35,176 nucleotides of DNA from Anaerolineae bacterium. Lineage in GTDB: Bacteria; Chloroflexota; Anaerolineae; Aggregatilineales; Phototrophicaceae. The position numbers were made by a program, and so were the translations under genes. Below the pieces are notes generated by a model. That model made no database searches, had not been told where the DNA came from, and saw only the letters and a list, made by a program, of their open reading frames with translations. The stretch lies in NCBI GenBank assembly GCA_013360465.1, contig JABWBO010000063.1:1-35176 (forward strand), read 5' to 3'. Below, piece after piece: positions 5,352 to 35,176 of this stretch. Each line of letters opens with the position of its first letter. Position 1 is the stretch's first letter.

Positions 5352-5734
5352 TGTCTGAGAATCGTTTTGGTGACAAAGACACAATAGAGTATTTTTTGGT
5401 TTATAGTGCCTTAATTCAAGCGGCGCGGCTGCGAGGCACAGTCACCTATCAGGAATTGGCTCTGTTAACCGGACTGCCTTTGAGAGGTAATCATATGAGT
5501 GGCAGTTTGGGCTGGGTGCTTGGCACCATTTCCGAAAACGAAGTAAGTCAGAATCGTCCCATGCTCAGTGCGCTTTGTATCACCGTAAATGGAAAACCGG
5601 GAACGAGTTTTTTACCGTTCGCCCGTAAACTTGGACTTCTGGACAGCGACGATCCTGAGCGGGAACAAACTTTCTGGGAAAACCAGTGCAAAGCATGTTA
5701 TCAAGTCTGGCAACAACAATTCCCCAAGAAATAA
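5351..5734 (+). CDS. Small conserved protein of the helicase-methylase cluster, unknown function
   Basis: The protein has 127 aa, starting at ATG 5351, which shares its A with the helicase stop codon; this implies translational coupling. The TTG at 5348 is an alternative in the same frame. The first half (VTYQELALLTGLPLRG) has the look of a small helix-turn-helix or alkyltransferase-like fold. The second half contains RPMLSALCITVNGKPGTSFL and FARKLGLL. I recall similar small proteins of this pattern (a TY/PY-x-E-L-A start, then 'RPLLSALVV...G.PG.GF') beside restriction-modification and helicase genes, but no function is known to me. It has no catalytic motif, signal peptide or membrane segment. 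Being locked between helicase and methylase, it is likely an adaptor or regulator of the complex. Confidence 0.7.
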   Translation: MSENRFGDKDTIEYFLVYSALIQAARLRGTVTYQELALLTGLPLRGNHMSGSLGWVLGTISENEVSQNRPMLSALCITVNGKPGTSFLPFARKLGLLDSDDPEREQTFWENQCKACYQVWQQQFPKK

Positions 5735-5743
5735 GGAAGATTC

Positions 5744-8632
5744 ATGACCTACCGCAAAAAACTGATCGAAGTGGCGTTGCCGCTCGAAGCCATCAACGTT
5801 GCCAGCGCCCGCGAAAAATCTATCCGGCACGGACACCCCTCAACGCTGCATCTGTGGTGGGCGCGCCGACCGCTCGCCGCTGCCCGTGCTGTGATCTTCA
5901 CCTCACTGGTCGATGATCCCGATTCGCCTGATGCGCTGCCCGCTTTTGTGGAAGCCTGTAAGCAACTTCCGAAAGGCGCGAACGCCGCCGTCGAAGACAC
6001 GCCCCGGATGCGCCTGTTCGACTTCATCGAGCGCTTGGTGACGTGGGAAGCGACAACCGACGAAGCGATCCTCACCACTGCCCGCGAACTGATTATGATC
6101 GCCACCGAAGGCAACCCGCCACCGCTGCTCGATCCGTTCGCCGGGGGTGGCAGCATCCCGTTGGAGGCGCAGCGTCTCGGATTGGAGGCACACGCCAGCG
6201 ACTTGAACCCCGTCGCGGTGATGATCAACAAGGCGCAGATTGAAATCCCGCCGCGTTTTGCCAACATGCCGCCGATCAATCCCGATGCCCGTGCCGCCAT
6301 GTTCGGCGAAAATGCGAAATCGGATGCGGAATGGCGTAGTGCTGCCGGACTCGCTGCCGATGTGCGTTATTACGGCGCATGGATGCGCGAAAAGGCTTGG
6401 GAGAAGATCGGACACCTATACCCGACGCATAATGGTGAAACTGTTATAGCGTGGATTTGGGCACGGATGGTGAAGAGTCCGAACCCGGCAGTTAACGCCT
6501 ATGTCCCACTTGTCCGCTCCTTTGAACTGAACAAAAAGAAGGGGAGACGTGCATGGGTCGAACCAACAATTGATTTACTCAAGGACGATAATACAACTCA
6601 CGATATAAAATTTGTTGTTCGGCGCGAGGAAGATGGTTTCCCAACGAACTTTATAGAAACCACGATGAATCGGCAAGGGGCCCAATGCCTTATTTCAGGC
6701 GTACCAATCACTTGGGATTACATACGCGCACAGGGAAAAGCAAAAGCAATTCGCGCAAGATTAATTGCGATTGTTACTGAGGGTGCCAATGGGAGAAACT
6801 ATCACTCTTCCACAGACAGTCAGGAAAAACTAGCCAATTCGGCAAGACCAGACTGGAGACCGTCAGGCGAAATTCCCTATAACCAAAGTAATCCCGGACA
6901 AACGAATACAGTGCGTTACGGATTAGATGATTGGGGGGACCTTTTTACTGAGAGACAGGCTCTTGCGCTTGATACATTCAGTAGCTTGGTTCTTGAAGCC
7001 CGAGAACAAATCTATTCCGATGCGATCAAAGCAGGTTTCTCTGAACTTGGGCAAGGAATAACAAATGGTGGGAATGGCGCGAAGGCATATGCAGAAGCAG
7101 TTAGTGTATTTCTTGCCTTTGCGATTGATAAGAGCGCCAATCTATGGTCATCTGTAACAAGTTGGATGAATGATCGAGGTGCTTTTCGGGAGACATTCGC
7201 ACGACAAGCTCTTCCTATGGTATGGGATTTTGCAGAAGCTAATCCGTTTAGCGATTCTGGTGGGAATTTTTCTCTGTATATTGAGCGAATCAGTGATGCA
7301 ATAGAGTTCATTTATACAGGTGGTCAAGTCGGTCATGTAAAGCAGCAAGATGCGACAAAAATCCAGAGCAACTTAAATTACATGATTTCAACTGACCCAC
7401 CATATTACGACAATATCGGGTATGCGGATTTATCTGACTTCTTCTACGTTTGGCTTCGCCGAAGCATACGCGACTTGTACCCAGATATTTTTGGGACTTT
7501 GCTTGTACCAAAAGCCGCAGAGTTGATTGCGAATCCTTATCGATTTGGTGGCAATCGAAAAGCAGCAACAGAGTTCTTTGAAAATGGTCTCTATGCGACT
7601 TTTCTGGGGATGCGAAAGTATGTTGTCAACACATATCCAATAACTGTTTATTATGCGTTCAAGCAATCTGAGGAAGATCAGAATAGTAGTGAAAACTCAG
7701 CTGCTGTTGAACAAAGAGCATCTACTGGTTGGGAGACTCTTTTGTCAGGGCTGATTGGTGCTGGTTTCAGCATAAACGGAACGTGGCCAGTGAGAACTGA
7801 AGGTGCTGGCAGAATAATCTCACTCGGTACGAATGCCCTCGCCTCATCCATCGTTCTTGTGTGCCGTCCTCGTCCCGAAGATGCGCCCACTAGTAGCCGT
7901 CGCGCGTTTGTCGATGCCATGCGCCGTGAACTGCCCGCTGCGCTCAAGAATATGCAGTCCGGCAATATCGCCCCGGTTGATTTAGCGCAGGCATCCATCG
8001 GTCCCGGCATGGCGATCTACAGCCGCTATAGCAAAGTGCTAGAAGCGGACGGCTCACCTATGAGCATTCGTGCCGCGTTGGGGCTGATCAATCAGGAACT
8101 TGATGCCTATCTCGCGGAGCAGGACGGCGACATCGACGCCGATACGCGCTTCGCAGTCGCATGGTTCCAGCAGTTTGGCTTTAACGAAGGGGAGTTTGGT
8201 CTGGCAGACAATCTCGCCCGTGCCAAGAACACTAGCGTAGACGGCGTTTCGCGCGCAGGGATTGTCCAGTCCGGGCGTGGCAAGGTCAAACTGCTGCACT
8301 GGCGAGACTATGATCCCGGCTCATGGGATCCGCAGCAGGATAAGCGCCCGACGGTATGGGAAGCCACGCACCACCTGATCGAGCGGCTAAATACGCACGG
8401 CGAAACCGGATCGGCAGCGCTGATGACCAAAATGCCATCGGATATGGCGGCGGAAGCACGCACGCTGGCGTATCGGCTGTACAGTATTTGCGAGCGCAAA
8501 GGATGGGCAGAACACGCCCGAGATTACAACGCACTAGTGATCAGTTGGGCGGGCATCGGTGAAGAAGCCGCTCGGCTGAAGCAGGCACGGGAAGCTGGCG
8601 ACGCAACACAGCAGACTCGGTTGTTTGAGTAG
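5744..8632 (+). CDS. DUF1156-type DNA methyltransferase (N6-adenine or N4-cytosine)
   Basis: The protein has 962 aa and starts at ATG 5744, 5 nt after AAGGAA (5733-5738). The N-terminus (ALPLEAINVASAREKSIRHG, then LHLWWARRPLAAARAV) is the DUF1156 signature. DPFAGGGS at 130-137 is the SAM-binding motif I, and DPPYYDN at 551-557 is catalytic motif IV, so the enzyme should modify an exocyclic amino group of A or C. It would protect host DNA or mark it for the helicase and the DUF499 ATPase. The DNA between about 6430 and 7830 is clearly richer in A+T and in codons such as ATA, AGA and AAT than either flank. That central stretch includes the insert before motif IV, where the recognition domain would be, which suggests exchange by recombination. 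No restriction endonuclease gene is adjacent. Confidence 0.88.
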   Translation: MTYRKKLIEVALPLEAINVASAREKSIRHGHPSTLHLWWARRPLAAARAVIFTSLVDDPDSPDALPAFVEACKQLPKGANAAVEDTPRMRLFDFIERLVTWEATTDEAILTTARELIMIATEGNPPPLLDPFAGGGSIPLEAQRLGLEAHASDLNPVAVMINKAQIEIPPRFANMPPINPDARAAMFGENAKSDAEWRSAAGLAADVRYYGAWMREKAWEKIGHLYPTHNGETVIAWIWARMVKSPNPAVNAYVPLVRSFELNKKKGRRAWVEPTIDLLKDDNTTHDIKFVVRREEDGFPTNFIETTMNRQGAQCLISGVPITWDYIRAQGKAKAIRARLIAIVTEGANGRNYHSSTDSQEKLANSARPDWRPSGEIPYNQSNPGQTNTVRYGLDDWGDLFTERQALALDTFSSLVLEAREQIYSDAIKAGFSELGQGITNGGNGAKAYAEAVSVFLAFAIDKSANLWSSVTSWMNDRGAFRETFARQALPMVWDFAEANPFSDSGGNFSLYIERISDAIEFIYTGGQVGHVKQQDATKIQSNLNYMISTDPPYYDNIGYADLSDFFYVWLRRSIRDLYPDIFGTLLVPKAAELIANPYRFGGNRKAATEFFENGLYATFLGMRKYVVNTYPITVYYAFKQSEEDQNSSENSAAVEQRASTGWETLLSGLIGAGFSINGTWPVRTEGAGRIISLGTNALASSIVLVCRPRPEDAPTSSRRAFVDAMRRELPAALKNMQSGNIAPVDLAQASIGPGMAIYSRYSKVLEADGSPMSIRAALGLINQELDAYLAEQDGDIDADTRFAVAWFQQFGFNEGEFGLADNLARAKNTSVDGVSRAGIVQSGRGKVKLLHWRDYDPGSWDPQQDKRPTVWEATHHLIERLNTHGETGSAALMTKMPSDMAAEARTLAYRLYSICERKGWAEHARDYNALVISWAGIGEEAARLKQAREAGDATQQTRLFE

Positions 8633-8640
8633 GAATACCT

Positions 8641-9450
8641 ATGAGTGGAGCAATTGTAAAACTCGCTGACCGTCGAGAAGCGAAAAACGAGCTTGCAGAG
8701 CTTTTTAAGCGGGCTGAGACCACAAACCTTATTCACTATTCTTGCGAGAGCTTCTATGATCGAACAGACGGTAGTTCGCCTCGAATTACCTCTATTGCTG
8801 TGCGCAATCTCAACAATGCACAAACTGTATCCTTTTCGATTCACCAAATCGCTGAAGAGCAGCAAGTTCCTTCCAGCGAGATCGAAGCCAACTATGATGA
8901 TCTTGAGCGGAAAATGTTGGACGGGTTCTTTGAATTTGTCCATCGGAGAGATACTTATCATTGGATTCATTGGAATATGCGGGACATTAATTATGGTTTT
9001 CCTGCTATTAATCACCGCTATAAGGTGTTGGGTGGAATACCTATCCAGATTCCAGAAGGTAATCTGCATGATTTAGCGAGACTTCTAATCGCTATCTATG
9101 GAGCAAAGTATGCAGATCATCCCCGCCTAGAAAGCGTTGTTTCCATGAACCACATGACAAACATGGATTTCTTAACCGGGAAACAAGAGGCATTGGCATT
9201 TGAGAACAAGGAGTATGTCAAGTTGCATCAATCTACCTTGAGAAAAGTGGACATTTTGGCAGCTATTGCGCAGCGAGAAAATAGCAGCGACCTAAAGACA
9301 AAAGCTCGCCGAAGGGATATATACGGATTGAGTGTTATAGCATGGGTTGATGTTATATATGATCATTGGGTAGGGAAATTATTCGCACTTATTGGCGTGG
9401 TTGCAACCTTGATTGGAACCATTTTGACAATATATACACTTTTTCGCTAG
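8641..9450 (+). CDS. Membrane-tailed protein of unknown function in the defence cluster
   Basis: The protein has 269 aa and starts at ATG 8641 after AGGAA (8632-8636), 8 bp past the methylase stop. A soluble region of about 245 residues is followed by one hydrophobic helix at the extreme C-terminus (about 247-269, LFALIGVVATLIGTILTIY), so the protein should be tail-anchored with its body in the cytoplasm. The soluble part contains HWIHWNMRDINYGF and SPRITSIAVRNL, which faintly recall Exo II and strand elements of DnaQ-like exonucleases, but the acidic Exo I pair is not visible. I do not assign an enzyme. The gene is AT-rich compared with the methylase before it and the ATPase after it, so it was probably acquired separately. 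A small membrane effector or sensor is the best guess. Confidence 0.65.
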   Translation: MSGAIVKLADRREAKNELAELFKRAETTNLIHYSCESFYDRTDGSSPRITSIAVRNLNNAQTVSFSIHQIAEEQQVPSSEIEANYDDLERKMLDGFFEFVHRRDTYHWIHWNMRDINYGFPAINHRYKVLGGIPIQIPEGNLHDLARLLIAIYGAKYADHPRLESVVSMNHMTNMDFLTGKQEALAFENKEYVKLHQSTLRKVDILAAIAQRENSSDLKTKARRRDIYGLSVIAWVDVIYDHWVGKLFALIGVVATLIGTILTIYTLFR

Positions 9451-9468
9451 AGAGTCTTCGAGGGCTAG

Positions 9469-9561
9469 ACGGCAAAAATTAACCGTGATCACATGAGCAA
9501 TGTCGTTGACGCGCTAAAAGCAGGTTTAGGCAGGATTCTTGTATTGAAAGACATGGAGTAA
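9469..9561 (+). pseudogene. Decayed duplicate of the 5' end of the DUF499 ATPase gene
   Basis: Reading 9469-9543 gives TAKINRDHMSNVVDALKAGL and a few more residues. The ATPase at 10172 begins MAKSNRDRVSEVMDALKAGL. Fifteen of the first 25 residues match, and the DNA is also clearly similar (for example GGCAAAAA.TAACCGTGATC). The ATG has become ACG, similarity fades near 9540, and a TAA at 9559-9561 closes the frame. The toxin-antitoxin pair lies exactly between this remnant and the intact gene, so the pair arrived together with, or by recombination between, two copies of the ATPase start. Confidence 0.8.
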
Positions 9562-9563
9562 CG

Positions 9564-9866
9564 ATGGATACGATTATCAGCATCAACCTGATTTCGACCA
9601 ACCCTGCAGTACGCAGCGGACGACCTTGTATTGCCGGGACGACTATCGAAGTATCCGCTATTGTGATCGCCAAGGTCGTGCATATGCAAACGCCGGACGA
9701 AATTGCGGCAGACTATCATCTGACACTGGCGCAGGTGTATGCAGCGCTGGCTTATTACTACGATCACAAAGCGGAAATTGACGAGCAGATAGCGGCACAA
9801 AACGCGATTGCGGATGCCTTTAAGGAGAAACGCATTGGCAGCCGCCATTCGCCTCTATTTGGATGA
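9564..9866 (+). CDS. DUF433 antitoxin-like protein
   Basis: The protein has 100 aa; ATG 9564 follows GGAG at 9555-9558. The pattern ISTNPAVRSGRPCIAGTTIE, then a short helix-turn-helix-like region (QTPDEIAADYHLTLAQVYAA) and LAYYYDHKAEID, is the DUF433 family. These proteins are usually encoded directly before a DUF5615 PIN-like partner, and the two act as a type II toxin-antitoxin-like pair. The C-terminal tail would bind and block the partner, while the HTH may autoregulate. Its 3' end overlaps the next gene by 32 bp, which is normal for such pairs. It lies between the decayed and intact copies of the DUF499 gene start. Confidence 0.85.
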   Translation: MDTIISINLISTNPAVRSGRPCIAGTTIEVSAIVIAKVVHMQTPDEIAADYHLTLAQVYAALAYYYDHKAEIDEQIAAQNAIADAFKEKRIGSRHSPLFG

Positions 9867-10170
9867 AAATCTCACGCCCGCAATTGCCGAGCAGCTACGT
9901 CTACGAGGCATCGATGCTGTGAGTGTGCGCGATCTTGATGCGCTGGGAGAAAGTGACGCGAGTCATCTCAGACGCGCCGTTGAGATGGAACGTGCATTGG
10001 TCACGGCGGATACTGATTTGCTGGTGATGGCGTCCGAAGGTGTGGAACACTGGGGCATCATTTACGGCAAGCCAAATAAACATTCAATCGGGGATTGGGT
10101 GACGAAATTAGAACTCATCTGCTCCGTATACGACGCAGACGAGATGAAAAACCACGTGGAGTATTTATAG
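9835..10170 (+). CDS. DUF5615 PIN-like toxin
   Basis: The likely start is TTG 9835, 7 nt after AAGGAG (9822-9827), giving 111 residues that begin AAAIRLYLDENLTP. This is the usual beginning of DUF5615 (R-L-x-x-D-E-x). Further family marks are SVRDLDALGESDASHLRRA, ALVTADTDLLVMA and GIIYG. The family has a PIN-like fold with acidic residues that may cut RNA. It pairs with the DUF433 protein just upstream. The stop is one base before the ATG of the DUF499 gene, so the pair is transcribed with the defence cluster. Whether the pair stabilises the island or is a passenger cannot be told from sequence. Confidence 0.82.
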   Translation: MAAAIRLYLDENLTPAIAEQLRLRGIDAVSVRDLDALGESDASHLRRAVEMERALVTADTDLLVMASEGVEHWGIIYGKPNKHSIGDWVTKLELICSVYDADEMKNHVEYL

Positions 10171-10171
10171 C

Positions 10172-13100
10172 ATGGCAAAAAGTAACCGTGATCGCGTCAG
10201 CGAAGTGATGGACGCGCTGAAAGCAGGACTCGCGCCGTTTGTGGTGCGTGAATACGCTCGCGTCTATGGCAATAAACTGATCGCTGAAATCAATGACACG
10301 CTCACGACCGGCGCATACGGTGGGCTTGCCAGCACCAGCGCCGAAGGCGCAGCCCGCGAGATGGACGCGCAAGCCTGCTTGAACGCCATACAGCGCCGGT
10401 GGGAACAAGTCTTCAAAGCGCGGCTGGGTAAGTCGGAACGCTCATATGTCGGCGAACTGCAAGACGCCCGCGTCGCATGGGCGCATCAAAAGCCGTTCAC
10501 GAACGACGAAGCCTATCGTATCGTCGATACCGCCATGCGTCTGCTCGAAGCTGTCGGCGCGCCCGAACAGGCACAGATTCCGCGCGACATCGCCCAAGAC
10601 CTGTTGCGACTGCGCTTTGAAGCCGAACAGAAACAGTCCGGCAGGAAAACCGGATCGCTCGACATGATGGCAGTGCCGACGATGACCACTCCCGGTTTAC
10701 GCCCGTGGCGCATGATTGTCAAGCCGCATCCCGATGTGATGGAGGGACGCTACATCCTTGGGGATTTCGTCGCCAACATCGCCGATGTCATGCAGGGCAA
10801 GGCGGCGGTCGAATATGCCGATCCAGTCGAGTTCTTCCGCCGCACCTATCTGACTGAGGGTTTGCGGGATCTATTGGTGACAGGGGTACGCCGTCTCACG
10901 GGTCAGGGTGGCGACCCGGTGGTGCAGCTTCAGACGGCGTTCGGCGGTGGCAAGACGCACAGTATGTTGGCGCTCTATCACCTTTTCGGTGGGCAGATCG
11001 GCTTTAGCGAAATCCCCGGCGGCGAAACCATTACAAACGAGTTCCCGCAAATTGATGATCGTATCTACGCCAAGCGTGCGGTGATCGTCGGTCTCGACTT
11101 CAGCCCAACGCAGCCGCGCCAGTATGCCGACTGCACCACCCACACGCTGTGGGGCGAGATTGCCTATCAGTTGGGCGGACACGCCGCTTATCAGTTGGTC
11201 GAGAAAGACGATCTGGCGGCGGTCAACCCCGGCACAGAGACGCTGACGAAATTGCTGGAAGCTCACGGACCGGCGCTCATCATCATCGATGAACTGGTCG
11301 CCTTCGCACGCAACCTCTTTGGTGTGGGCGAACGGCTATCCGCCGGATCATTTGATAGTGTGATGTCGTTTGTGCAGTCGCTCACTGAAGCGGTCAAGCG
11401 TTCCAGCGATGCAATGCTGTTGGTGTCGATCCCGGAAAGTGACAACGAAATCGGGGGCGAGGGTGGGAAAGCGGCGCTGGACATCCTCGCCAAGACGATT
11501 GGGCGAATCGAATCGGTGTGGAAGCCCGTCACGGCGACCGAAAGCTTCGAGATCGTGCGCCGCCGCCTATTCTCGTCGGAGATGGATTATGCCGCCCGCG
11601 ATGCGGTGATCGCCGCCTTCCGCGAGATGTACGCAGGCAACAGCGGCGAATTTCCATCTGGCGTGGGCGAAGGCGACTACATGCGGCGCATGAAAGAAGC
11701 CTACCCCATTCACCCGGAATTGTTCGCTCGGCTGTATGAGGATTGGTCAACGCTCGACCGTTTCCAGCGCACGCGCGGTGTGCTGCGCTTGATGGCGACA
11801 GTGATCCATCGTTTGTGGAACGATAACGATCAATCACTGATGATCATGCCTGGGTCAATCCCATTGTTCGCCCCGGCGGTGCGTAACGAACTGCTGCGCT
11901 ATCTGCCCGATGGCTGGTCCGCTATCGTCGATGCCGATATTGACGGGCAAGGCTCAAAACCATATCAACTCGATACAAGCGTGCCGACGCTGGGGCAGTA
12001 CACCGCTGCCCGCCGTGTAGGGCGCTCTATCTTCATCGGTAGCGCACCGTCAGTCACCGGGCAGTCTGTGCGTGGTGTGGAAGAAGTTCGCATCCGGTTA
12101 GCGACGGTACAACCGGGCGAGCAGCTTGCCGCGTTCAACGACGCCCTACGCCGCATGAGCAATCAACTGACATACCTGTACAGCGACAGCAGCCGCTACT
12201 GGTACGATACCCGCCCGACTGTCAACCGCATGGCGCAGGATCGCGCGCAGAACATCCACGCTGATGAGGTGTACAAAGAGGCGATTGCGCGACTGCGCGT
12301 TGGCAAGCCGCGTCGCGAGGACTTCGCTGGCACACACGTCGCGCCGCAAACCTCCGGCGATGTCGCAGATGAATGGCGCACGCGGGTCGTCGTTCTCGCG
12401 CCAGAATACGCGCATAAGCGCGGCAATGGCATTTCTCAGGCGCAGCGGATGGCGCAGGAAATCCTCGAAAATCGTGGAAGTTCGCCGCGCCTGTATCGCA
12501 ACATGCTGGTGTTTATCGCCGCCGATGCCGAAAATGCCGAGGCATGGGAAAAGGCGCTGCGCGAGTATCTGGCGTGGAAGTCGATTAAGGACGAAGCCGA
12601 ACCGCTCAATCTGGACGCGCAGCAGCGGAAGCAGGTCGAGACGAACTGCAAGCGCACCGAGGAAACGCTACTCAGCCGCTTGCAGGAAACGTACAGTTGG
12701 TTGATCGTCCCGGTGCAGCCCGATCCGACAGGTGCAATTGAATATCAGACACATCGCATTGCCGGACAAGACAGCTTTTATGATCGGGCTGGGCGTAAAC
12801 TGCGCCAGAGCGAGATGCTCATCCCACGCTGGTCGCCCGACAATCTCCGCATGGAACTGGATCGGTTTCTCTGGCGCGATCAGGCACATCTGGGGCTGAA
12901 GCTGCTCTGGGAGTACCTTGCCCGTTATTGCTATCTGCCTCGGCTGTACGATGAGAATGTTTTGCTGGACGCTGTGCGCGATGGTATCGCCCGCGATGAT
13001 GCACCGTTCGGCTATGCCACGATGGTCGGTTTGGATGGAGCGTACAAAGGGTTGGTGTATCGACAGCCAGCGCCCAGCTTGTATTTCGATGATAACGACG

Positions 13101-13486
13101 TGTTGATACGCCCTGAAGTGGCAGATGCACAGATTGAGGCAGAGCAGCGTAAACGCGACTCGGCTTTGGGAGCCGCGCCATCAGCGACGAGCGAACGCCC
13201 GGTCAGCGGTTCTAGCGTGCTTCAGCCTACCATCCCCGCCAAGGCGAAACGCATCACCCGCTATCACGGCACGGTCGAGATCGACCCGCAACGGGGCAAT
13301 AAAGAGATGGCGACCATCGTTGAGGAGATCGTCCAGCGCCTCACCAGTCTGACCGGAACAGGCGTGACGATCACGCTTGAGATCAGCGCCGAACGCGAAG
13401 CCGGGTTCGACGATGCGACGGTGCGGACGATCAACGAGAACAGCCGAACACTGAAGTTTCGGGATCATGGGTTTGAGGGGGAATAG
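10172..13486 (+). CDS. DUF499 (COG1483) P-loop ATPase with N-terminal Swt1-like HEPN domain
   Basis: The protein has 1104 aa. Residues 1 to about 140 look like the Swt1-type HEPN domain. The diagnostic R-x4-H is at R100-H105 (RVAWAH), followed by FTNDEAYRIVDTAMRLLEAV. HEPN domains with this motif are usually metal-independent RNases. The ATPase core follows, with Walker A FGGGKTHS (about 257-264) and Walker B ALIIIDELVAF (about 367-377). The large C-terminal part is typical of DUF499 proteins, and the last 100 residues after a Ser/Pro-rich linker (about 990-1020) form a separate small domain. DUF499 ATPases, DUF1156 methylases and SNF2 helicases are known to occur together in defence islands. 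I infer an ATP-driven complex whose HEPN part attacks RNA after infection is sensed. The start is fixed by homology to the decayed copy at 9469. Confidence 0.88.
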   Translation: MAKSNRDRVSEVMDALKAGLAPFVVREYARVYGNKLIAEINDTLTTGAYGGLASTSAEGAAREMDAQACLNAIQRRWEQVFKARLGKSERSYVGELQDARVAWAHQKPFTNDEAYRIVDTAMRLLEAVGAPEQAQIPRDIAQDLLRLRFEAEQKQSGRKTGSLDMMAVPTMTTPGLRPWRMIVKPHPDVMEGRYILGDFVANIADVMQGKAAVEYADPVEFFRRTYLTEGLRDLLVTGVRRLTGQGGDPVVQLQTAFGGGKTHSMLALYHLFGGQIGFSEIPGGETITNEFPQIDDRIYAKRAVIVGLDFSPTQPRQYADCTTHTLWGEIAYQLGGHAAYQLVEKDDLAAVNPGTETLTKLLEAHGPALIIIDELVAFARNLFGVGERLSAGSFDSVMSFVQSLTEAVKRSSDAMLLVSIPESDNEIGGEGGKAALDILAKTIGRIESVWKPVTATESFEIVRRRLFSSEMDYAARDAVIAAFREMYAGNSGEFPSGVGEGDYMRRMKEAYPIHPELFARLYEDWSTLDRFQRTRGVLRLMATVIHRLWNDNDQSLMIMPGSIPLFAPAVRNELLRYLPDGWSAIVDADIDGQGSKPYQLDTSVPTLGQYTAARRVGRSIFIGSAPSVTGQSVRGVEEVRIRLATVQPGEQLAAFNDALRRMSNQLTYLYSDSSRYWYDTRPTVNRMAQDRAQNIHADEVYKEAIARLRVGKPRREDFAGTHVAPQTSGDVADEWRTRVVVLAPEYAHKRGNGISQAQRMAQEILENRGSSPRLYRNMLVFIAADAENAEAWEKALREYLAWKSIKDEAEPLNLDAQQRKQVETNCKRTEETLLSRLQETYSWLIVPVQPDPTGAIEYQTHRIAGQDSFYDRAGRKLRQSEMLIPRWSPDNLRMELDRFLWRDQAHLGLKLLWEYLARYCYLPRLYDENVLLDAVRDGIARDDAPFGYATMVGLDGAYKGLVYRQPAPSLYFDDNDVLIRPEVADAQIEAEQRKRDSALGAAPSATSERPVSGSSVLQPTIPAKAKRITRYHGTVEIDPQRGNKEMATIVEEIVQRLTSLTGTGVTITLEISAEREAGFDDATVRTINENSRTLKFRDHGFEGE

Positions 13487-15853: not shown

Positions 15854-15899
15854 CGCCTTGCTCTTGCCGTATTTTCACTCACGGGAGCAGGGCGTTTTT
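15854..15899 (+). terminator. Terminator/attenuator between the 65-aa gene and the recombinase
   Basis: CGCCTTGCTC (15854-15863) pairs with GAGCAGGGCG (15885-15894) through one G-U wobble, followed by TTTTT (15895-15899). The recombinase ribosome binding site starts 17 bp later, with no new promoter visible. Recombinase expression therefore seems to depend on read-through. Confidence 0.7.
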
Positions 15900-15929
15900 C
15901 GTTATCTAAACCGGGAAGGAGGAAACCAA

Positions 15930-18032
15930 ATGCCACGTCCATTGAAACGCCCTGAGCAGCCAATTGATCCGTACAAAGCACAGCCCTTGCCGCTTGGTCG
16001 CCCGGCAGCCGTGTACTATCGCCAATCGTCCGAGGGACAAATTGGCAATATCATGACGACGCTGCAAACCATCGACATGATTGAGCATCTGCTCCATCAA
16101 GGCTATGTGCGCGAGAATGTCGCCATGATCGACGCCGATGCTGCGGTCAGCGGGACGAAGAAAATCCGCGAACGCAAAGGCATGTCGCAGCTCTACGATC
16201 TGATCGAGGCGGGGCAGATTGGGTTGGTCGCGGCTCAGGACGTAGACCGCTTCTTCCGTGACGTGACGATGATCGAAACTAACCTGTTCATCGATGCCTG
16301 CAAACGCAATAACGTGCAGGTGATGACTCCGCGCATGGTCTACGACTTCGCTCACCCGGTCATGGGATCATCACACATCAAGATGTTCCGCGAGGAAGCG
16401 CAGCGCGCCGCCGACTACCTCGAATACCAGATTCGGGGGCGTTTGGTGAAGGCGCGGCACAGCCGGAGCGCAGGCGGTATGTGGTCAGGCAGAAAGATTC
16501 TGCCCGGTTTCATGGTGGACTGCCGCGCGAAGGTGGATGAACAGCGCAACCCCGATTTCCGCAAATACAAACGCTTCGATCTGTATGCGGATGTAACTCT
16601 GCGCTATTTCCAGTTATTCCGTGAGAACAACGGCAACTTGTACCAGACGTGGCGCTATATTGAGCATCACGGACCGTACTTCCCCGACATCGTGGAGGGA
16701 ATGGTGCCAGAGGGCTTCAAGGCGACCGAACATCTTGACCGTCGTTCCCTGATTACGGGAAAGTTGACTCCCTCAAGCACAGGACTGGAATACATGCTGG
16801 TCAATGTTGCCTACATCGGGCATTGGATTCACATGGGGGCGGTCGTGCAGTGGAACAATCACGAGCCAATCATCCCACTTGACCTGTTCATGTATGCCTT
16901 CAATCGTCTCTCACCGACCGACTTTCACGGCGAACCGAACCCGAACTACGTCCCCTACCGCCCGTGGATCCGGCACGATAAAGCCGAGCGCACGGCAACA
17001 CCACCCACTTACGCAAGCCTGGTGTATACCGACGATCTTCCCAATCATCCGCATAAGCGGTTGGCGACGATTTGGAGTGTGGTCGCTGACAAGTACGAGT
17101 ACCTGCTCAACGAATACCCCTACCGCTCGACGGTGTGGAAGCTGCGCGCCTTCATTCTGGATGGCATGGTTGACGAAATGTTATTGGAACGACTGCGCGA
17201 CACGACCATCGACGAAGCGGCTTGGGCGGCAGCGCTGGCAAGCGTCGAGAATGTTGATCAGGCGGAAGTGCGGCGGCTGAAGGCGGCGATCCGGCAGGCG
17301 GAGACATCGAAGGATAATATCATCGCCAATCTGGGACTGCTCTCGAACGCGGAAATGGTTGTCCGCGCTCAAGCGAAGTTCGAACAGGCTGACGGCGAGA
17401 TCGTTGAACTAAAAGCAGAACTCAACCGCATCCAATCGGGTAAGCAGCAGTCGAAATCGCTGGCGGATGCGCGTCCAGCGCTGGAAATGGTGATCGCACG
17501 TTGGAACGATGTACCCCCTGAAGAGAAACGGGCGCTGTTCGAGGCGTTCGCCCGCTACATCAAGGTCACGAAGGTGACACGGCACACAAAGCACATCACG
17601 GTGTTCTGGCGTGATGGCAGCACCTCGGAGCGCAGCACCACCCACAAGGCGCGCGGCTATTTCTGGGATGAGGCAGAACTGGAAACGCTGCGCGAGATGT
17701 TTGACAGCCATGTTGATCAATGGGAGATTTTGCGTGCTTTCCCTGACTATGCGTGGCGGTCGCTGCAAGAACGCTACGCCTATCGCTACGGAAATGGTTA
17801 CTATCCGAAGCACTATGCTGGAAAGAAACCCTATAACCGCCACACGCGCTGGCAAGACACGGCGGAATATCACGCGGAGATCAATGCGTCACAACTCGCG
17901 GTGAGTGGTGCATCCACTGATCGACCATCAAGGCTTTTTTGCGCCTCGTGCGGAACGTCTTCGCTGCCTCGATCAGGAAGTCCAAGAGCGACGGATGGCG
18001 CATCAGGCGGTAGACCTCATCGACGGCGATGA
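15930..18032 (+). CDS. Large serine recombinase
   Basis: The start is ATG 15930, 7 nt after AAGGAGG (15916-15922); the open frame before it includes the terminator. The 700-aa protein has the resolvase catalytic domain (VYYRQSSEG, Ser33 the likely nucleophile; a VDRFFRD element) followed by the Recombinase domain (SSTGLEYMLVNVAYIGHWI). A coiled-coil stretch lies near residues 440-520. The Cys-rich zinc ribbon of typical phage integrases is not evident. It should cut and rejoin element DNA at att sites or act as a resolvase. It shares a promoter type with the conjugation operons and so belongs to the same element. Its last 50 codons run through the 3' part of the convergent virB4-like gene, and the Ser/Arg/Gly-rich end looks like antisense reading rather than a folded domain. 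The original stop may have been lost. Confidence 0.88.
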   Translation: MPRPLKRPEQPIDPYKAQPLPLGRPAAVYYRQSSEGQIGNIMTTLQTIDMIEHLLHQGYVRENVAMIDADAAVSGTKKIRERKGMSQLYDLIEAGQIGLVAAQDVDRFFRDVTMIETNLFIDACKRNNVQVMTPRMVYDFAHPVMGSSHIKMFREEAQRAADYLEYQIRGRLVKARHSRSAGGMWSGRKILPGFMVDCRAKVDEQRNPDFRKYKRFDLYADVTLRYFQLFRENNGNLYQTWRYIEHHGPYFPDIVEGMVPEGFKATEHLDRRSLITGKLTPSSTGLEYMLVNVAYIGHWIHMGAVVQWNNHEPIIPLDLFMYAFNRLSPTDFHGEPNPNYVPYRPWIRHDKAERTATPPTYASLVYTDDLPNHPHKRLATIWSVVADKYEYLLNEYPYRSTVWKLRAFILDGMVDEMLLERLRDTTIDEAAWAAALASVENVDQAEVRRLKAAIRQAETSKDNIIANLGLLSNAEMVVRAQAKFEQADGEIVELKAELNRIQSGKQQSKSLADARPALEMVIARWNDVPPEEKRALFEAFARYIKVTKVTRHTKHITVFWRDGSTSERSTTHKARGYFWDEAELETLREMFDSHVDQWEILRAFPDYAWRSLQERYAYRYGNGYYPKHYAGKKPYNRHTRWQDTAEYHAEINASQLAVSGASTDRPSRLFCASCGTSSLPRSGSPRATDGASGGRPHRRR

Positions 18033-32132: not shown

Positions 32133-33077
32133 ATGACAGCACCTAATCGGAAGAACCAAGTCCCTCCCCCACCGAAACCGGGGTGGGCAATCTATTTGCG
32201 GACAAGCGGCGACGAAAACCAGAAACCGGAACTCTCGCGGGAACGGCAGCGCACCATGATTCAGATGAGCTTCTTAGAGTCATCTGACCTGCCGATTTAT
32301 GACGAGTACATCGACGTGCTGACAGGCAAAGACCCGCGCCGCAAAGCGTATCAACGGATGTTGTCCGATGCCCATGCGGGCAAGTTCTCGCATGTTGTGG
32401 TGGAACGCGCCGACCGTTTTGGGCGTAACGATACCGAAGCATTGCGAGCGATTGACGAGCTGAACGCATGTGGGATCGCCGTGCGCTTTGCGAATGCGCC
32501 CGATCTTGATCCCATCGACCCGGATGATCGGGTTTTGGTCACCCTGACATTTGTTCTCGCTCGCCGCGAGTCGGCATTGATGGGTATACGGGTGAAAGGC
32601 GGTTTGAAGGCAAAGCGTCAAAGCGGTGGCTACGCTGGACGCGCACCCGATGGCTATCTCAACATGCGCGGACAAACCGAACTTGATCAGCGCAGCGAGA
32701 TGGGACGCATCAGCTATTGGATCGAACCTGATCCGACGCGGGCGCATATCTGGAAGGAAGCGTGGGCGCTGCTGCTGACGGGTGCGCTGTCAGTGGGCGA
32801 AATCGCTGAAGCTCTGCACGCGAAAGGTTACTGCGCCCGCAACGGCAAACCATTTGTAATCGTAGGCAAAACAGGCACGCGGCGACCACTCACGGATAAG
32901 CTGCTGCGTGCCTTCCATGACTGGACATACGCCGGATGGGTGGTGAGCGAATGCGATAACATCGCACCGAAGACCATTCGCGGGAAGTGGGAACCGCTCG
33001 TTTCCACAGAGGACTTTGAAACCGGGCTAGCCATCTTGCAGCGGCTTCTGAATGAGTCGGATGAGCAGGCATCATGA
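32133..33077 (+). CDS. Serine recombinase, short form without C-terminal zinc-ribbon region
   Basis: The protein has 314 aa; ATG 32133 follows TGAGGA. The resolvase domain has AIYLRTSGDE (Ser25 the likely nucleophile) and the VVERADRFGRNDTEAL segment; FVLARRESALMGIRVKGGL leads into the long helix. The Recombinase domain continues to about residue 300 (TYAGWVVS), and the protein then ends, so it lacks the zinc ribbon and coiled coil of large serine integrases. It is clearly paralogous to the next gene, with which it overlaps by ATGA. It may act as a partner subunit, in the way paired recombinases do in some elements, or be a truncated copy. Both catalytic Ser and Arg motifs are kept. Confidence 0.85.
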   Translation: MTAPNRKNQVPPPPKPGWAIYLRTSGDENQKPELSRERQRTMIQMSFLESSDLPIYDEYIDVLTGKDPRRKAYQRMLSDAHAGKFSHVVVERADRFGRNDTEALRAIDELNACGIAVRFANAPDLDPIDPDDRVLVTLTFVLARRESALMGIRVKGGLKAKRQSGGYAGRAPDGYLNMRGQTELDQRSEMGRISYWIEPDPTRAHIWKEAWALLLTGALSVGEIAEALHAKGYCARNGKPFVIVGKTGTRRPLTDKLLRAFHDWTYAGWVVSECDNIAPKTIRGKWEPLVSTEDFETGLAILQRLLNESDEQAS

Positions 33078-34867
33078 GTGGGTATCGACGTAAGAAGGAT
33101 CCACCCGCCCCACCCCAACCAGGTTGGGCGGTTTACCTGCGTACCAGCAGCGAGGATCACCAGAAGCCCGAGCTGTCTCGCGCACGGCAGCGCTCTCTCA
33201 TCGATGGCAACGTGTTGGAGCACTCCGATCTGCCTGTCATTGACGAGTACGTCGATGTTCTGACAGGCAGGACAGCCAACCGTACAGGCTATCAGCGGAT
33301 GCTGGCAGATGCGCGGGTCGGCAAATTCTCGCATGTGATCGTTGAGCGTGCGGACAGGTTTGGACGCAATGACTCAGAGGCGCTGCGGGCTATCGACGAA
33401 TTGAACGAGTTCGGAGTATCGGTGCGGTTTGCCAACTCCCCCGATCTGGATCCGATGGACCCGGATGACCGGATACTGGTCGCGCTTTCGTTTACACTTG
33501 CACGGCGCGAATCAGCGCTGCTCGGCATCCGCACGCGCGGCGGGCAGCAGGCGAAGCGCAAGAGCGGTGGTTACATCAGCCTTGCGCCTGACGGCTACAG
33601 GAACGTGACAGCGCGAACCGACATCAAGAAGAAGACCGATCTGGGGCGATGGGACAAATGGATTGAGATTGACCCGGAACGCGCACCGATTTGGCGTCTA
33701 GCATGGGATATGCTGCTGGAAGAGAAATGGACACTCGCCGATATAGCGGAACGACTGCACGAGCTTGGCTTTCGGCATCGCAGCGGTCGCCCTTTTGTTG
33801 AAGTCAGTCGGCAAGGTAAGCGTCGTGCCAACATCACTACCTTGTCGCACGCCTTCCATAATTGGGCATACGCCGGCTGGGTGGTTAGCCTCAAAAACGG
33901 AGTCTCGCCCAAAACGGTGCGTGGAAACTGGGACCCGATTGTCACGACAGCGGAATTCGAGCGCGGGCTTGCCATTTTAGAAGAACGAAACCGGAGCCGT
34001 GCCGCAAAGCGTAAGCGGGAGTATCTGCTCAAGAGCATTATCAGCTATATCGATGCAGACGGGACTGAATGGAAGCTAACGTGTTCAACTCCGAACGCGA
34101 GCCGTTCGGGAGGTGGCACGCCGTATTACTGCGTGCCGCGCAGCAATATCAATTTTATGTGCGAGAAAATCGACTCCCAGATACCCGATGAGCTGTGCGC
34201 TATCCAGATCGACCCGGCACATTTGCCCATCATTCGAGCTTACTACAAGCACGACTTGGCGGAGAAGCTCGGTATTGCACGTCCCGACGAGCGCAAACTG
34301 ATGACCGATGCTCTCACCGCTATCGACCAGGAAGAAGCTCGTATGGCGCGGTTATTGGTGAGTGGCAAGATCAGCGAAGAGATCTGGAACGGGTTGTGGG
34401 CGGAGTGGCAGGAACGGCGCAATCGGCTGCGCTCAAACTTAGATAGCGTCGCACAGCAGCAGGAATTTCATATCGACAATCTGGAAACAGCACTTGGAAT
34501 TATCGCGCAAGTAGGATCGCTGTATAATCGTCTTGAAGTCAGCGCTCAACGAGAACTGCTGCTTCACATGGTCAGACAGGTGGTTGTCAACACGGACGGC
34601 GAAATCGTCTTGGAATTGAATGCTCCGTTCGCGTATCTGAAGGACTTATCGGATAGAGCGAAACGAGGGCAGCGAGTGAACCCCTCAGAAATGCAAACAT
34701 CCAGCGCCTTTGAGGGTGCTGGATGTTCGGACTGGCTCCAATCTAGCTCCACTAACTGGACAAAACTCGAACAATTGAGCGGTGAAAAAGTCGTCCAGTT
34801 CTTCCAAGTCATTACCTTTCCTCAGCGCGAACTCTGTGCGCGCTACTCCACGGTGAACTCCAACTAA
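33074..34867 (+). CDS. Large serine recombinase, full-length paralogue
   Basis: The protein has 597 aa; ATG 33074 overlaps the stop of the shorter paralogue. The catalytic domain has VYLRTSSEDHQ (Ser25) and IVERADRFGRNDSEAL. The Recombinase domain ends near AYAGWVVS. A Cys-containing segment follows (LTCSTPNAS, PYYCVPRS, FMCEKID at about 336-375), a reduced zinc-ribbon, and then a charged helical region (about 415-470) of coiled-coil type. This is the layout of integrases that join element and chromosome att sites. It is the last gene of the operon, and 165 bp later a ParA-type gene begins, so the element's right end may lie in or near that gap. Confidence 0.9.
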   Translation: MSGYRRKKDPPAPPQPGWAVYLRTSSEDHQKPELSRARQRSLIDGNVLEHSDLPVIDEYVDVLTGRTANRTGYQRMLADARVGKFSHVIVERADRFGRNDSEALRAIDELNEFGVSVRFANSPDLDPMDPDDRILVALSFTLARRESALLGIRTRGGQQAKRKSGGYISLAPDGYRNVTARTDIKKKTDLGRWDKWIEIDPERAPIWRLAWDMLLEEKWTLADIAERLHELGFRHRSGRPFVEVSRQGKRRANITTLSHAFHNWAYAGWVVSLKNGVSPKTVRGNWDPIVTTAEFERGLAILEERNRSRAAKRKREYLLKSIISYIDADGTEWKLTCSTPNASRSGGGTPYYCVPRSNINFMCEKIDSQIPDELCAIQIDPAHLPIIRAYYKHDLAEKLGIARPDERKLMTDALTAIDQEEARMARLLVSGKISEEIWNGLWAEWQERRNRLRSNLDSVAQQQEFHIDNLETALGIIAQVGSLYNRLEVSAQRELLLHMVRQVVVNTDGEIVLELNAPFAYLKDLSDRAKRGQRVNPSEMQTSSAFEGAGCSDWLQSSSTNWTKLEQLSGEKVVQFFQVITFPQRELCARYSTVNSN

Positions 34868-35032: not shown

Positions 35033-35077
35033 ATGACTCGCGTTTTCGTATTCACCAACCACAAAGGGGGTGTCGGT
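35033..35077 (+). CDS. parA: ParA/Soj-type ATPase, first exon (15 codons) before a group II intron
   Basis: ATG 35033, about 9 nt after GAGAGG (35018-35023), opens MTRVFVFTNHKGGVG. This is the characteristic N-terminus of ParA/MinD-family ATPases, with the deviant Walker A KGGVGKT. The motif is cut after KGGVG; the next bases begin GTGCG, the 5' end of a group II intron, so the Lys-Thr codons should lie in exon 2 beyond the window. ParA proteins position plasmids or chromosomes, and many integrative elements carry one. Whether this copy belongs to the element or to the chromosome is open. Confidence 0.7.
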
Positions 35078-35176
35078 GTGCGCCCGTAAAGGCGTTTTCA
35101 TGTACTGCCTCGAAGGAGGTTACGGGTAGTGAGAACCCGTATGGTCAACTGACTCACCGGAGGTGGAAACACCGCA
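35078..35176 (+). ncRNA. Group II intron, 5' end (start of domain I)
   Basis: The sequence starts GTGCGCCCG, matching the GUGYG 5' consensus of bacterial group II introns. Within 100 nt it forms several hairpins of the kind found in domain I: CCTC-GAAG-GAGG, TACGGGT-AGTGAGA-ACCCGTA, and GGTG-GAAA-CACC with a GAAA tetraloop. Without splicing, the ParA frame would end after KGGVGVRP at the TAA at 35087-35089. The rest of the intron, including any reverse transcriptase, is outside the window. Confidence 0.75.

What the first reader, a model, noticed from the sequence alone, without database searches (positions are those of the whole stretch)
35033..35176. Group II intron inside the Walker A motif of a ParA gene
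The exon ends after KGGVG and the intron begins GTGCG, exactly within the KGGVGKT codons. Targeting the most conserved DNA of a gene family lets an intron spread across all parA genes, but makes the ATPase fully dependent on splicing. Hairpins including a GAAA tetraloop support a real domain I.
Basis: partly seen in the sequence, partly recalled or inferred. Interest (0 to 1): 0.7.

Follow-up and report, generated by a model that had tools for sequence, protein, structure and literature searches.

The report
Self-splicing intron inside ParA's ATP-binding motif
A self-splicing mobile intron sits exactly inside the most conserved part of a DNA-partition gene, repeats at the same codon boundary in at least seven such genes of this genome, and has relatives at that spot in the chromosomal copy of other bacteria, so ParA there should need RNA splicing to be made.

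Summary
Confirmed and extended. The window is a whole contig that ends 99 nt inside a group II intron, which starts right after codons KGGVG of a parA gene. The same intron start, 100% identical, is on 7 contigs of this assembly, always after KGGVG or KGGVA. The matching 3' end is on 4 other contigs, each followed in frame by Lys-Thr/Ser. Two paralogous parA genes are empty at that point. A site-pattern scan of a collection of 84,980 genomes gave 54 loci: 23 read as ParA with an intron at this boundary, in Chloroflexota and Bacillota. All 16 whose exon 2 was held have domain V and a Lys-Thr exon 2. EBS1 in the intron covaries with wobble bases of the Walker A codons. In the family of Laceyella, 13 of 23 genomes match the site; 11 of those 13 have a Noc-like gene upstream, and intron divergence tracks Noc divergence. 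13 of 16 introns lack the YADD motif of reverse transcriptase, yet keep a maturase-like ORF (dN/dS 0.20-0.47 in the four pairs that could be measured), resembling plastid MatK. Splicing was not tested, and the interior of the window's intron is missing from the assembly.

The parts
35033..35077 (+). parA exon 1: MTRVFVFTNHKGGVG
   Evidence: Read directly. Paralogues on C115 and C29 continue KSTSATN... without interruption.
35072..35077 (+). putative IBS1 (GTCGGT), bases -6 to -1 of exon 1
   Evidence: Position fixed by EBS1-IBS1 covariation in 23 related introns. The EBS1 of the window's own intron is beyond the contig end.
35065..35070 (+). putative IBS2 (bases -13 to -8)
   Evidence: By homology with relatives, whose best pairing window lies near intron nt 190 (17 of 23 perfect). 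Weaker than IBS1: that segment hardly varies, so pairing is shown but not covariation.
35078..35176 (+). 5' end of group II intron (first 99 nt, start of domain I); contig ends here
   Evidence: 100% identical start on 7 contigs. 63-82% identical to the 5' ends of 16 complete ParA-site introns.
35122..35140 (+). hairpin ACGGGT/ACCCGT in intron domain I
   Evidence: 4 of 6 pairs have compensatory changes in an alignment of the window with 7 relatives.
35162..35173 (+). GGTG-GAAA-CACC hairpin (GAAA tetraloop) in intron domain I
   Evidence: Each of its 4 pairs has one row with both sides changed; 2 of 8 rows were cut before it by my choice of coordinates, and one further row breaks the outermost pair.
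32133..33077 (+). serine recombinase gene upstream of parA (same mobile-element backbone)
   Evidence: Pfam Resolvase. Similar ORFs precede the intact parA on C115 (by eye).
33074..34867 (+). large serine recombinase gene directly upstream of the interrupted parA
   Evidence: Pfam Resolvase + Recombinase. Its 3' part and the spacer match C115 at 76% up to the insertion point.

Best explanation
The window ends in a mobile group II intron inserted between the two halves of the Walker A (P-loop) motif of a ParA-type ATPase gene, KGGVG | KS/TT. It belongs to a family of introns specialised on this spot, whose intact encoded protein is nearest to LtrA among solved structures. The intron RNA recognises the target by base pairing EBS1 (and probably EBS2) with the codons for Gly-Gly-Val-Gly, whose first two bases are nearly invariant in ParA genes. 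In this genome the intron has recently spread to at least seven parA genes, five on related serine-recombinase element backbones and two in other surroundings, presumably by retrohoming. ParA can be made from these genes only if the intron splices out. In other bacteria the same-site intron sits in a parA gene with the neighbours of chromosomal soj. There most copies lack the reverse-transcriptase motif but keep a constrained maturase-like protein, and in one family they diverge together with the host gene next door, so they look like immobile introns that only splice. Shown by sequence: site, ends, empty sites, family, EBS1-IBS1 covariation, constraint on the ORF, co-divergence with noc. Inferred: splicing, retrohoming, and an RT ORF inside this particular copy.
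For: Seven identical 5' ends, all at KGGV(G/A)|. Four 3' ends, all |K(T/S)T, 3 of 4 over Rfam's group II cut-off. The intron ends are 100% identical in every pair, while 200 bp upstream are 60-92% identical and exon 2 62-74%. Two empty sites in the same genome. Exon 2 begins at position 15-16 of Pfam AAA_31. 23 of 54 pattern loci read as ParA exon 1 followed by a stop soon after the boundary, and all 16 with exon 2 held have domain V. EBS1 tracks the wobble bases: 27 of 38 Watson-Crick pairs at -1/-4 in 19 distinct rows, against a mean of 10.0 and a maximum of 22 in 20,000 permutations. ParA-site ORFs are one side of a branch, 100/98 support, against 10 introns at other sites. LtrA is the nearest solved relative of the L060 protein, E 1e-123. 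In the family of Laceyella 13 of 23 genomes match the site pattern, 11 of 13 with a Noc-like ORF upstream, and intron divergence follows Noc divergence, Mantel r 0.85.
Against: No contig of this assembly joins the 5' and 3' halves; their pairing, and the RT ORF, are taken from relatives. No 3' half can be assigned to the window's own parA. No RNA data exist here. The six uninterrupted Walker A sites show that the target is not saturated. EBS1 pairing is poor in one relative (L059, 2 of 6), and 8 of 23 introns have at least one unpaired EBS1 position. The permutation test ignores relatedness, although identical rows were merged. The shared intron start of the relatives is partly by construction, because the scan pattern asked for GTGCGNCC. 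The tree used only ten other-site introns as outgroup, and several degenerate ORFs have long branches. 10 of 23 genomes of the Laceyella family do not match the pattern and were not examined.
Confidence: 0.88

Rival explanations
1. The intron entered one ancestral parA, and the copies in this genome arose by duplication of the interrupted element or by gene conversion, without repeated retrohoming.
For: Five of the seven 5' halves (C57, C75, C81, C212, C225) lie on related backbones, 71-92% identical in 200 bp.
Against: The intron ends are 100% identical while the surrounding DNA is only 60-92% identical (5' side) or 62-74% (exon 2). C13 has unrelated upstream DNA and a different ParA (KGGVA). 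Intact paralogues of the same element exist.
Confidence: 0.1
2. The insertion simply inactivates parA; the genes are dead and nothing is spliced.
For: Unspliced, the frame stops 3 codons after KGGVG. Intact ParA-type sites also exist in this genome, so loss could be tolerated.
Against: Exon 2 stays open over 240-262 codons in all 4 own 3' halves. In other bacteria the interrupted gene has the neighbours of soj and persists over large divergence. EBS1 tracks exon wobble bases. Four pairs of maturase-like ORFs show dN/dS of 0.20-0.47.
Confidence: 0.06
3. The pattern is a metagenome assembly or binning artefact: one intron from one organism glued to parA genes of several populations.
For: All seven 5' contigs end 75-99 nt inside the intron and the four 3' halves start 77-96 nt before its end, as expected at a collapsed repeat. 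Reported contamination of the bin is 4.27%.
Against: Each junction is precise at the same codon boundary. The arrangement occurs unbroken on single contigs of named isolates such as Dictyobacter vulcani, Laceyella and Clostridium algidicarnis. Empty sites in the same bin have similar upstream DNA.
Confidence: 0.04
4. The site is reached again and again by unrelated group II introns because Walker A codons are a good target (convergence), and there is no single ParA-site family.
For: Degenerate ORFs have long branches and only ten other-site introns were used as outgroup. The scan pattern itself asked for GTGCGNCC, so the shared start is partly by construction. The window intron's 3' end is also 82% identical to a Subdoligranulum plasmid intron whose 5' end I could not place.
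Against: All 16 complete introns end CCTAC, which the pattern did not ask for, and their ORFs form one side of a branch with support 100/98.
Confidence: 0.15

Closest known systems
Ll.LtrB / Ef.PcfG group II introns in conjugative relaxase genes (PMC5072309, PMC6003770: passages seen by 'find', starts of abstracts in listings)
   Same: Nearest solved relative of the intron protein (LtrA, E 1e-123 with L060). Interrupts a conserved catalytic motif of a mobile-element gene family and spreads among its members, with intron identity far above exon identity.
   Different: Target is the Walker A of ParA/Soj, not a relaxase histidine motif. Relatives sit in a soj-like gene in two phyla and mostly lack the YADD motif.
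Plastid trnK intron with MatK (described in PMC4424553, passages seen)
   Same: Intron in a housekeeping gene; encoded protein with decayed RT and retained maturase part; vertical inheritance (the last recalled for plants).
   Different: Bacterial, in a protein gene, and in one family with RT-intact members at the same site. Splicing function of the ORF is untested here.
Inteins at Walker A sites, e.g. MCM-a and the archaeal VMA-b intein (PMC10643990, passages seen)
   Same: Selfish element placed in the ATP-binding motif, so that only precise removal restores the protein and homologous genes offer the same target.
   Different: Protein splicing and DNA homing, not RNA splicing and reverse transcription; other host genes.
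Thermosynechococcus elongatus group II intron families (PMC2882425, passages seen)
   Same: Group II introns multiplied within a genome; EBS sequences diverge to new target sites.
   Different: [quoted passage not shown] here one codon-level site is shared by a gene family.

Membership tests
Group II intron | GUGYG 5' end and AY 3' end | tested here: met
   GTGCG start on 7 own contigs...CTAC end on 4. 16 of 16 complete relatives the same, the start being asked for by the scan pattern.
Group II intron | Domain V | tested here: met
   RF00029 over cut-off on own C252, C36 and C72; C155 is truncated and missed; C36 was just under the cut-off. 16 of 16 complete relatives. Not inside the window itself.
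Group II intron | EBS1-IBS1 pairing with the 5' exon | tested here: met
   In relatives only: 15 of 23 perfect 6/6 pairs including G-U, with covariation at wobble positions. The window's EBS1 is not in the assembly.
Group II intron | Intron-encoded RT/maturase | tested here: inconclusive
   RVT_1, maturase and HNH domains in L060; none recoverable for the window's copy. The other own RTs lie in other elements.
Group II intron | Splicing | not testable with these tools
   No RNA data.
LtrA-type (mitochondrial-like, IIA) lineage | Maturase closest to LtrA | tested here: met
   Relative L060: LtrA E 1e-123, next solved RT E 2e-46. The IIA assignment is recalled knowledge, supported by a T directly 5' of EBS1 in 22 of 23 that can pair with the +1 A of exon 2.
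ParA/Soj Walker-type ATPase (host gene) | AAA_31/CbiA fold with deviant Walker A KGGVGK(T/S)T | tested here: met
   Exon 2 of C252 and C36 hit AAA_31 at E 7e-49 and 3e-24, starting at profile position 15-16; empty-site paralogues read KGGVGKST.
MatK-like splicing-only maturase intron (relatives, not the window) | RT active-site motif lost, protein still constrained, host-linked inheritance | tested here: met
   13 of 16 lack Y(A/V/I/M)DD in any frame. dN/dS 0.29, 0.20, 0.47, 0.23 in the 4 RT-dead pairs; the other 4 of 8 pairs computed had saturated dS. Mantel r 0.85 with Noc in 11 loci. The predicted fold of one (L065) matches LtrA best.
MatK-like splicing-only maturase intron (relatives, not the window) | Protein needed for splicing of its own intron | not testable with these tools
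   Needs deletion or in vitro splicing. Whether another RT in those genomes helps in trans was not tested.

The most novel reading that the evidence does not exclude
There is a bacterial counterpart of the plastid matK intron: a group II intron long resident in the Walker A codons of the chromosomal partition gene soj (13 of 23 genomes of one family match the site), with a private RT-dead maturase kept only for splicing. The window's genome shows the still mobile state of the same family spreading through parA paralogues. Because EBS1 follows the codon wobble bases while the other bases are fixed by the protein motif, the intron parasitises a protein motif rather than a particular gene.
Probability: 0.55. 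Interest if true: 0.85.

Novelty: new variant of a known kind. Interest (0 to 1): 0.72.

Why it matters
Group II introns in bacteria are said to avoid housekeeping genes, and non-mobile derivatives are said not to persist long (PMC4424553 and PMC6003770, passages seen). Here a same-site family sits in a soj-like partition gene in two phyla, mostly without the RT motif and, in one family, co-diverging with the neighbouring gene, while a sister intron is multiplying in ParA genes. That gives a natural series from mobile retroelement to dependent, splicing-only intron in culturable bacteria. The matK-like transition, and the question why an intron in a core gene is tolerated, become testable outside plants. 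If splicing limits ParA level, it would also be a hidden control point in chromosome and element partition.

Tried and rejected
Exact 17-mer of the intron 5' end in viral contigs: 3 loci, all unrelated beyond the word. A 22-nt 3' end: none. Junction patterns in viral contigs: 2 and 1 loci, all chance matches by translation. The phage collection was not searched. Plasmid collection with the window's last 144 nt: no match; with the 3' end: 25 records, of which three were opened (L037, L038, L039) and a fourth record through its RT (L113). In these nine loci no exon looked like ParA, but both ends were placed only for L113 and L115; for the others only a 3' end or doubtful ends were read. The first 99 nt were sought in 98 genomes of the host family: only the own genome has it, so no complete copy of this intron was found. 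The RT at C250 was considered as the intron's RT and rejected by eye, because it is followed by a Cas1-like gene; C19 and C132 carry other introns. LAGLIDADG was considered for the short ORFs and not supported: they align with the maturases, and L065 matches LtrA by sequence and fold. That fold used an alignment holding RT-intact relatives, so it leans towards an RT shape. Of 54 pattern loci, 31 were dropped as chance (no ParA exon 1); of 6 phylum loci outside the own genome, 2 were dropped (L045, L046). Reversed control patterns also hit: 2 of 400 genomes for the 5' pattern, 7 of 400 for the 3' pattern with one mismatch allowed. Of 24 introns listed for the EBS scan, L055 was left out as too short; L042 and L072 are probably the same genome and were merged as identical rows.

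Papers: ten searches. Listings were complete for (6; 3; 0; 11; 9), and partial for 33 (20 of 70), 34 (20 of 359), 41 (20 of 33), 67 (12 of 164) and 104 (8 of 37). No listed title or abstract start describes a group II intron in parA or soj. Passages were seen in 12 papers; none was read whole. The library lacks most subscription journals, so this is not proof of novelty.

Full report
What is in the window. The window is the complete contig C75 of a 5.93-Mb assembly in 256 contigs. Its last 144 bases hold an ATG (35033), the codons MTRVFVFTNHKGGVG, and then GTGCGCCCGTAAAGGCG..., cut by the contig end at 35176. Read on without splicing, the frame gives VRP and stops. Rfam finds nothing in the window itself, as expected for 99 nt of domain I.

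The other half is in the same assembly. The 25-nt intron start (up to 3 mismatches allowed) is found 7 times in the genome, always perfect, with no hit for the reversed control pattern. Every copy lies directly after KGGVG (six) or KGGVA (C13), and every such contig ends 75-99 nt into the intron, as a collapsed repeat does. The 3' end is on C252, C36, C72 and C155. Each time ...CTACCCTAC is followed in frame by KTTTAIN (C252) or KSTSATN (the other three), open over 240, 259, 262 and 259 codons. Rfam's group II model is over its cut-off on C252, C36 and C72; C155 holds only 77 nt of intron and is missed, and in the whole-genome search only C252 of these was over the cut-off. Exon 2 of C252 and C36 matches Pfam AAA_31 from profile position 15-16, so exon 1 supplies the missing start of the domain.

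Empty sites and recent spread. C115 and C29 carry paralogous parA genes that read ...CACAAAGGGGGTGTCGGT|AAATCGACATC... without a break. This fixes the insertion point. C115 shows ORFs in the order recombinase, recombinase, parA, as in the window, and then a ParB-like ORF (the C115 ORFs were named by eye, no family search was made for them). The intron's first 75 nt are identical in all 21 pairs of loci and its last 77 nt in all 6 pairs, while 200 bp upstream are 60-92% identical and 700 bp of exon 2 are 62-74% identical (about 60% is what unrelated DNA gives in that measure). An intron present since the paralogues diverged would have diverged with them, so insertion (or conversion) is recent and repeated. 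In this genome 7 sites are interrupted and 6 sites of the exact pattern KGGV(G/A)K(S/T)T are intact. None of the other 97 genomes of the host's family has the 99-nt start.

A family of introns at this spot. A pattern for the 5' junction, AARGGNGGNGTNGSN + GTGCGNCC, was scanned over genome contigs (84,980 genomes): 54 loci. By translation, 23 are a ParA exon 1 followed by a stop 3-21 codons into the intron, and 31 are chance matches in other frames. In 16 of the 23 the held flank reaches exon 2: introns of 1687-2570 nt, all ending CCTAC, all followed by KTT, all with domain V. Hosts of these 16 by record title: Dictyobacter vulcani, Ktedonosporobacter and Ktedonobacteria brp13 (Chloroflexota); Laceyella (two), Thermoactinomyces, Baia, Seinonella, Shimazuella, Kroppenstedtia, Paludifilum and Paenactinomyces (Thermoactinomycetaceae); Clostridium algidicarnis and simiarum; and two Bacillota MAGs. 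For the other seven, among them Dictyobacter arantiisoli, Thermoflavimicrobium (two) and two heliobacteria, only the 5' junction was held. In 400 genomes of the host phylum the 5' pattern hits 7 genomes, own included, 2 of them chance, with 2 hits for the reversed control; the 3' pattern hits 7, own included, one of them (G376) with a mismatch, with 7 hits for the control, which like the pattern was allowed one mismatch. Four genomes (G119, G221, G375, G448) have both junctions on one contig, 2.2-2.5 kb apart. The window intron's ends are most like those of the three Ktedonobacteria (5' 79-82%, 3' 84-87%) and Shimazuella (76%, 86%).

How the site is recognised. In an alignment of 23 intron starts the best window for pairing with exon bases -6 to -1 lies near intron nt 280 (mean 5.5 of 6 pairs, 15 of 23 perfect with G-U allowed), and for -13 to -8 near nt 190 (mean 5.7 of 6, 17 of 23 perfect). 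At the two codon-wobble positions (-1, -4), which the scan pattern left free, 27 of 38 pairs are Watson-Crick in 19 distinct rows; 20,000 permutations gave a mean of 10.0 and a maximum of 22. One row, C-G at -2, even follows the Gly-to-Ala change of KGGVA (L058). The base before EBS1 is T in 22 of 23 and the first exon-2 base is A in all 16. Permutation ignores relatedness; the result against the reading is L059, which pairs at only 2 of 6. For the window's own intron EBS1 is not available. Within the last seven bases the seven own exons differ at -1, -2, -4 and -7, so its EBS1 must tolerate mismatches or wobble.

From mobile to immobile. Only 3 of 16 complete introns (L060 Dictyobacter, L077 Shimazuella, L087 Ktedonosporobacter) keep a YADD motif; 13 lack Y(A/V/I/M)DD in any frame, yet have a long ORF. 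Eight ORF pairs were compared; the four RT-dead pairs gave dN/dS of 0.29 (Laceyella), 0.20 (Thermoactinomyces/Baia), 0.47 (Clostridium) and 0.23 (Kroppenstedtia/Paludifilum), and in the other four dS was saturated. In an alignment of 14 of the 16 ORFs the C-terminal maturase-like part is well conserved (by eye). L065 matches the Pfam maturase domain just below its cut-off; L054 and L081 match no Pfam family. An AlphaFold model of L065 (mean pLDDT 77) matches LtrA best, E 1e-17, with the caveat that its alignment held RT-intact relatives. L060 has RVT_1, maturase and HNH domains, and LtrA is its nearest solved structure.

Where the gene is. Of eight loci whose neighbours were listed, the interrupted gene lies between noc-like and spo0J/parB-like genes in Laceyella, Shimazuella, Paenactinomyces and Clostridium algidicarnis, and is followed by a parB-like gene in brp13 and UBA8153; in Dictyobacter and Ktedonosporobacter the held flank does not show it (read by eye from translations). 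That is the arrangement of chromosomal soj; 'chromosomal' is inferred from it. In the family of Laceyella sediminis (genome of L065; the tool names no family) 13 of 23 genomes match the 5' junction pattern; 11 of the 13 have a Noc-like ORF upstream (longest upstream ORF with the motif YQPR), and intron and Noc distances correlate (Mantel r 0.85, reached by 1 of 5000 permutations). That points to vertical inheritance. The other 10 genomes were not examined, so the intron is not shown to be fixed in the family.

One origin. In a tree of 16 ParA-site ORFs and 10 ORFs of introns at other sites, the ParA-site rows are one side of a branch (100/98; 98% of bootstrap trees), with long-branch warnings for L075, L076 and L108. 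The nearest RT in the plasmid collection (Subdoligranulum, 62% identity) lies in another gene. The shared intron start is partly by construction of the scan; the shared end is not.

Known or new. Introns in conserved motifs of mobile-element genes are known: Ll.LtrB and Ef.PcfG in histidine motifs of relaxases (PMC5072309, passages). Inteins at Walker A are known (PMC10643990, passages). Degenerate intron proteins in bacteria are described as few and non-mobile derivatives as not persisting long (PMC4424553, passages), and introns in bacterial housekeeping genes as rare (PMC6003770, passages). Ten full-text searches listed no paper on a group II intron in parA or soj; five of the listings were partial. 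I therefore rate it a new variant of a known kind.

What remains open. No contig spans the window's intron, its interior is unknown, 3' halves cannot be assigned to 5' halves, splicing and retrohoming are inferred, and whether RT-dead introns are helped by an RT elsewhere in their genomes was not tested.

Noticed in passing
window 1875-13486: Hma anti-phage defence system: HmaA (1875-5351, 1641 bits), HmaB (5744-8632, 1165 bits) and HmaC (10172-13486, 1059 bits; Pfam DUF499 and a Swt1-like HEPN domain) by PADLOC and Pfam.
   Followed up: partly
window 15858-18032, 32133-33077, 33074-34867: Three serine-recombinase genes; the last two stand in tandem directly upstream of the interrupted parA, as similar ORFs do on C115 (by eye).
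   Followed up: partly
L014 (C250 of the same genome): A reverse transcriptase ORF of 320 aa directly followed by a Cas1-like gene, apparently a CRISPR-associated RT (by eye).
   Followed up: no
L017, L018, L019 (C67, C209, C143 of the same genome): Three further reverse-transcriptase genes of 373-403 aa on three contigs, only weakly similar to the intron RT of Dictyobacter (E 2.5e-10 to 5.8e-6).
   Followed up: no
L113 2905-5402 (Subdoligranulum variabile plasmid): An intron whose RT is 62% identical to that of Dictyobacter's ParA-site intron interrupts a different protein gene (...IIKHTDD|GETQIETPE...), which suggests target switching in this lineage.
   Followed up: partly
L054, L095 (Clostridium algidicarnis, C. 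simiarum): Very eroded RT regions, with no recognisable SHGFRP or YADD motif but a maturase-like end, in a parA gene; in L054 it stands between noc-like and parB-like genes.
   Followed up: partly
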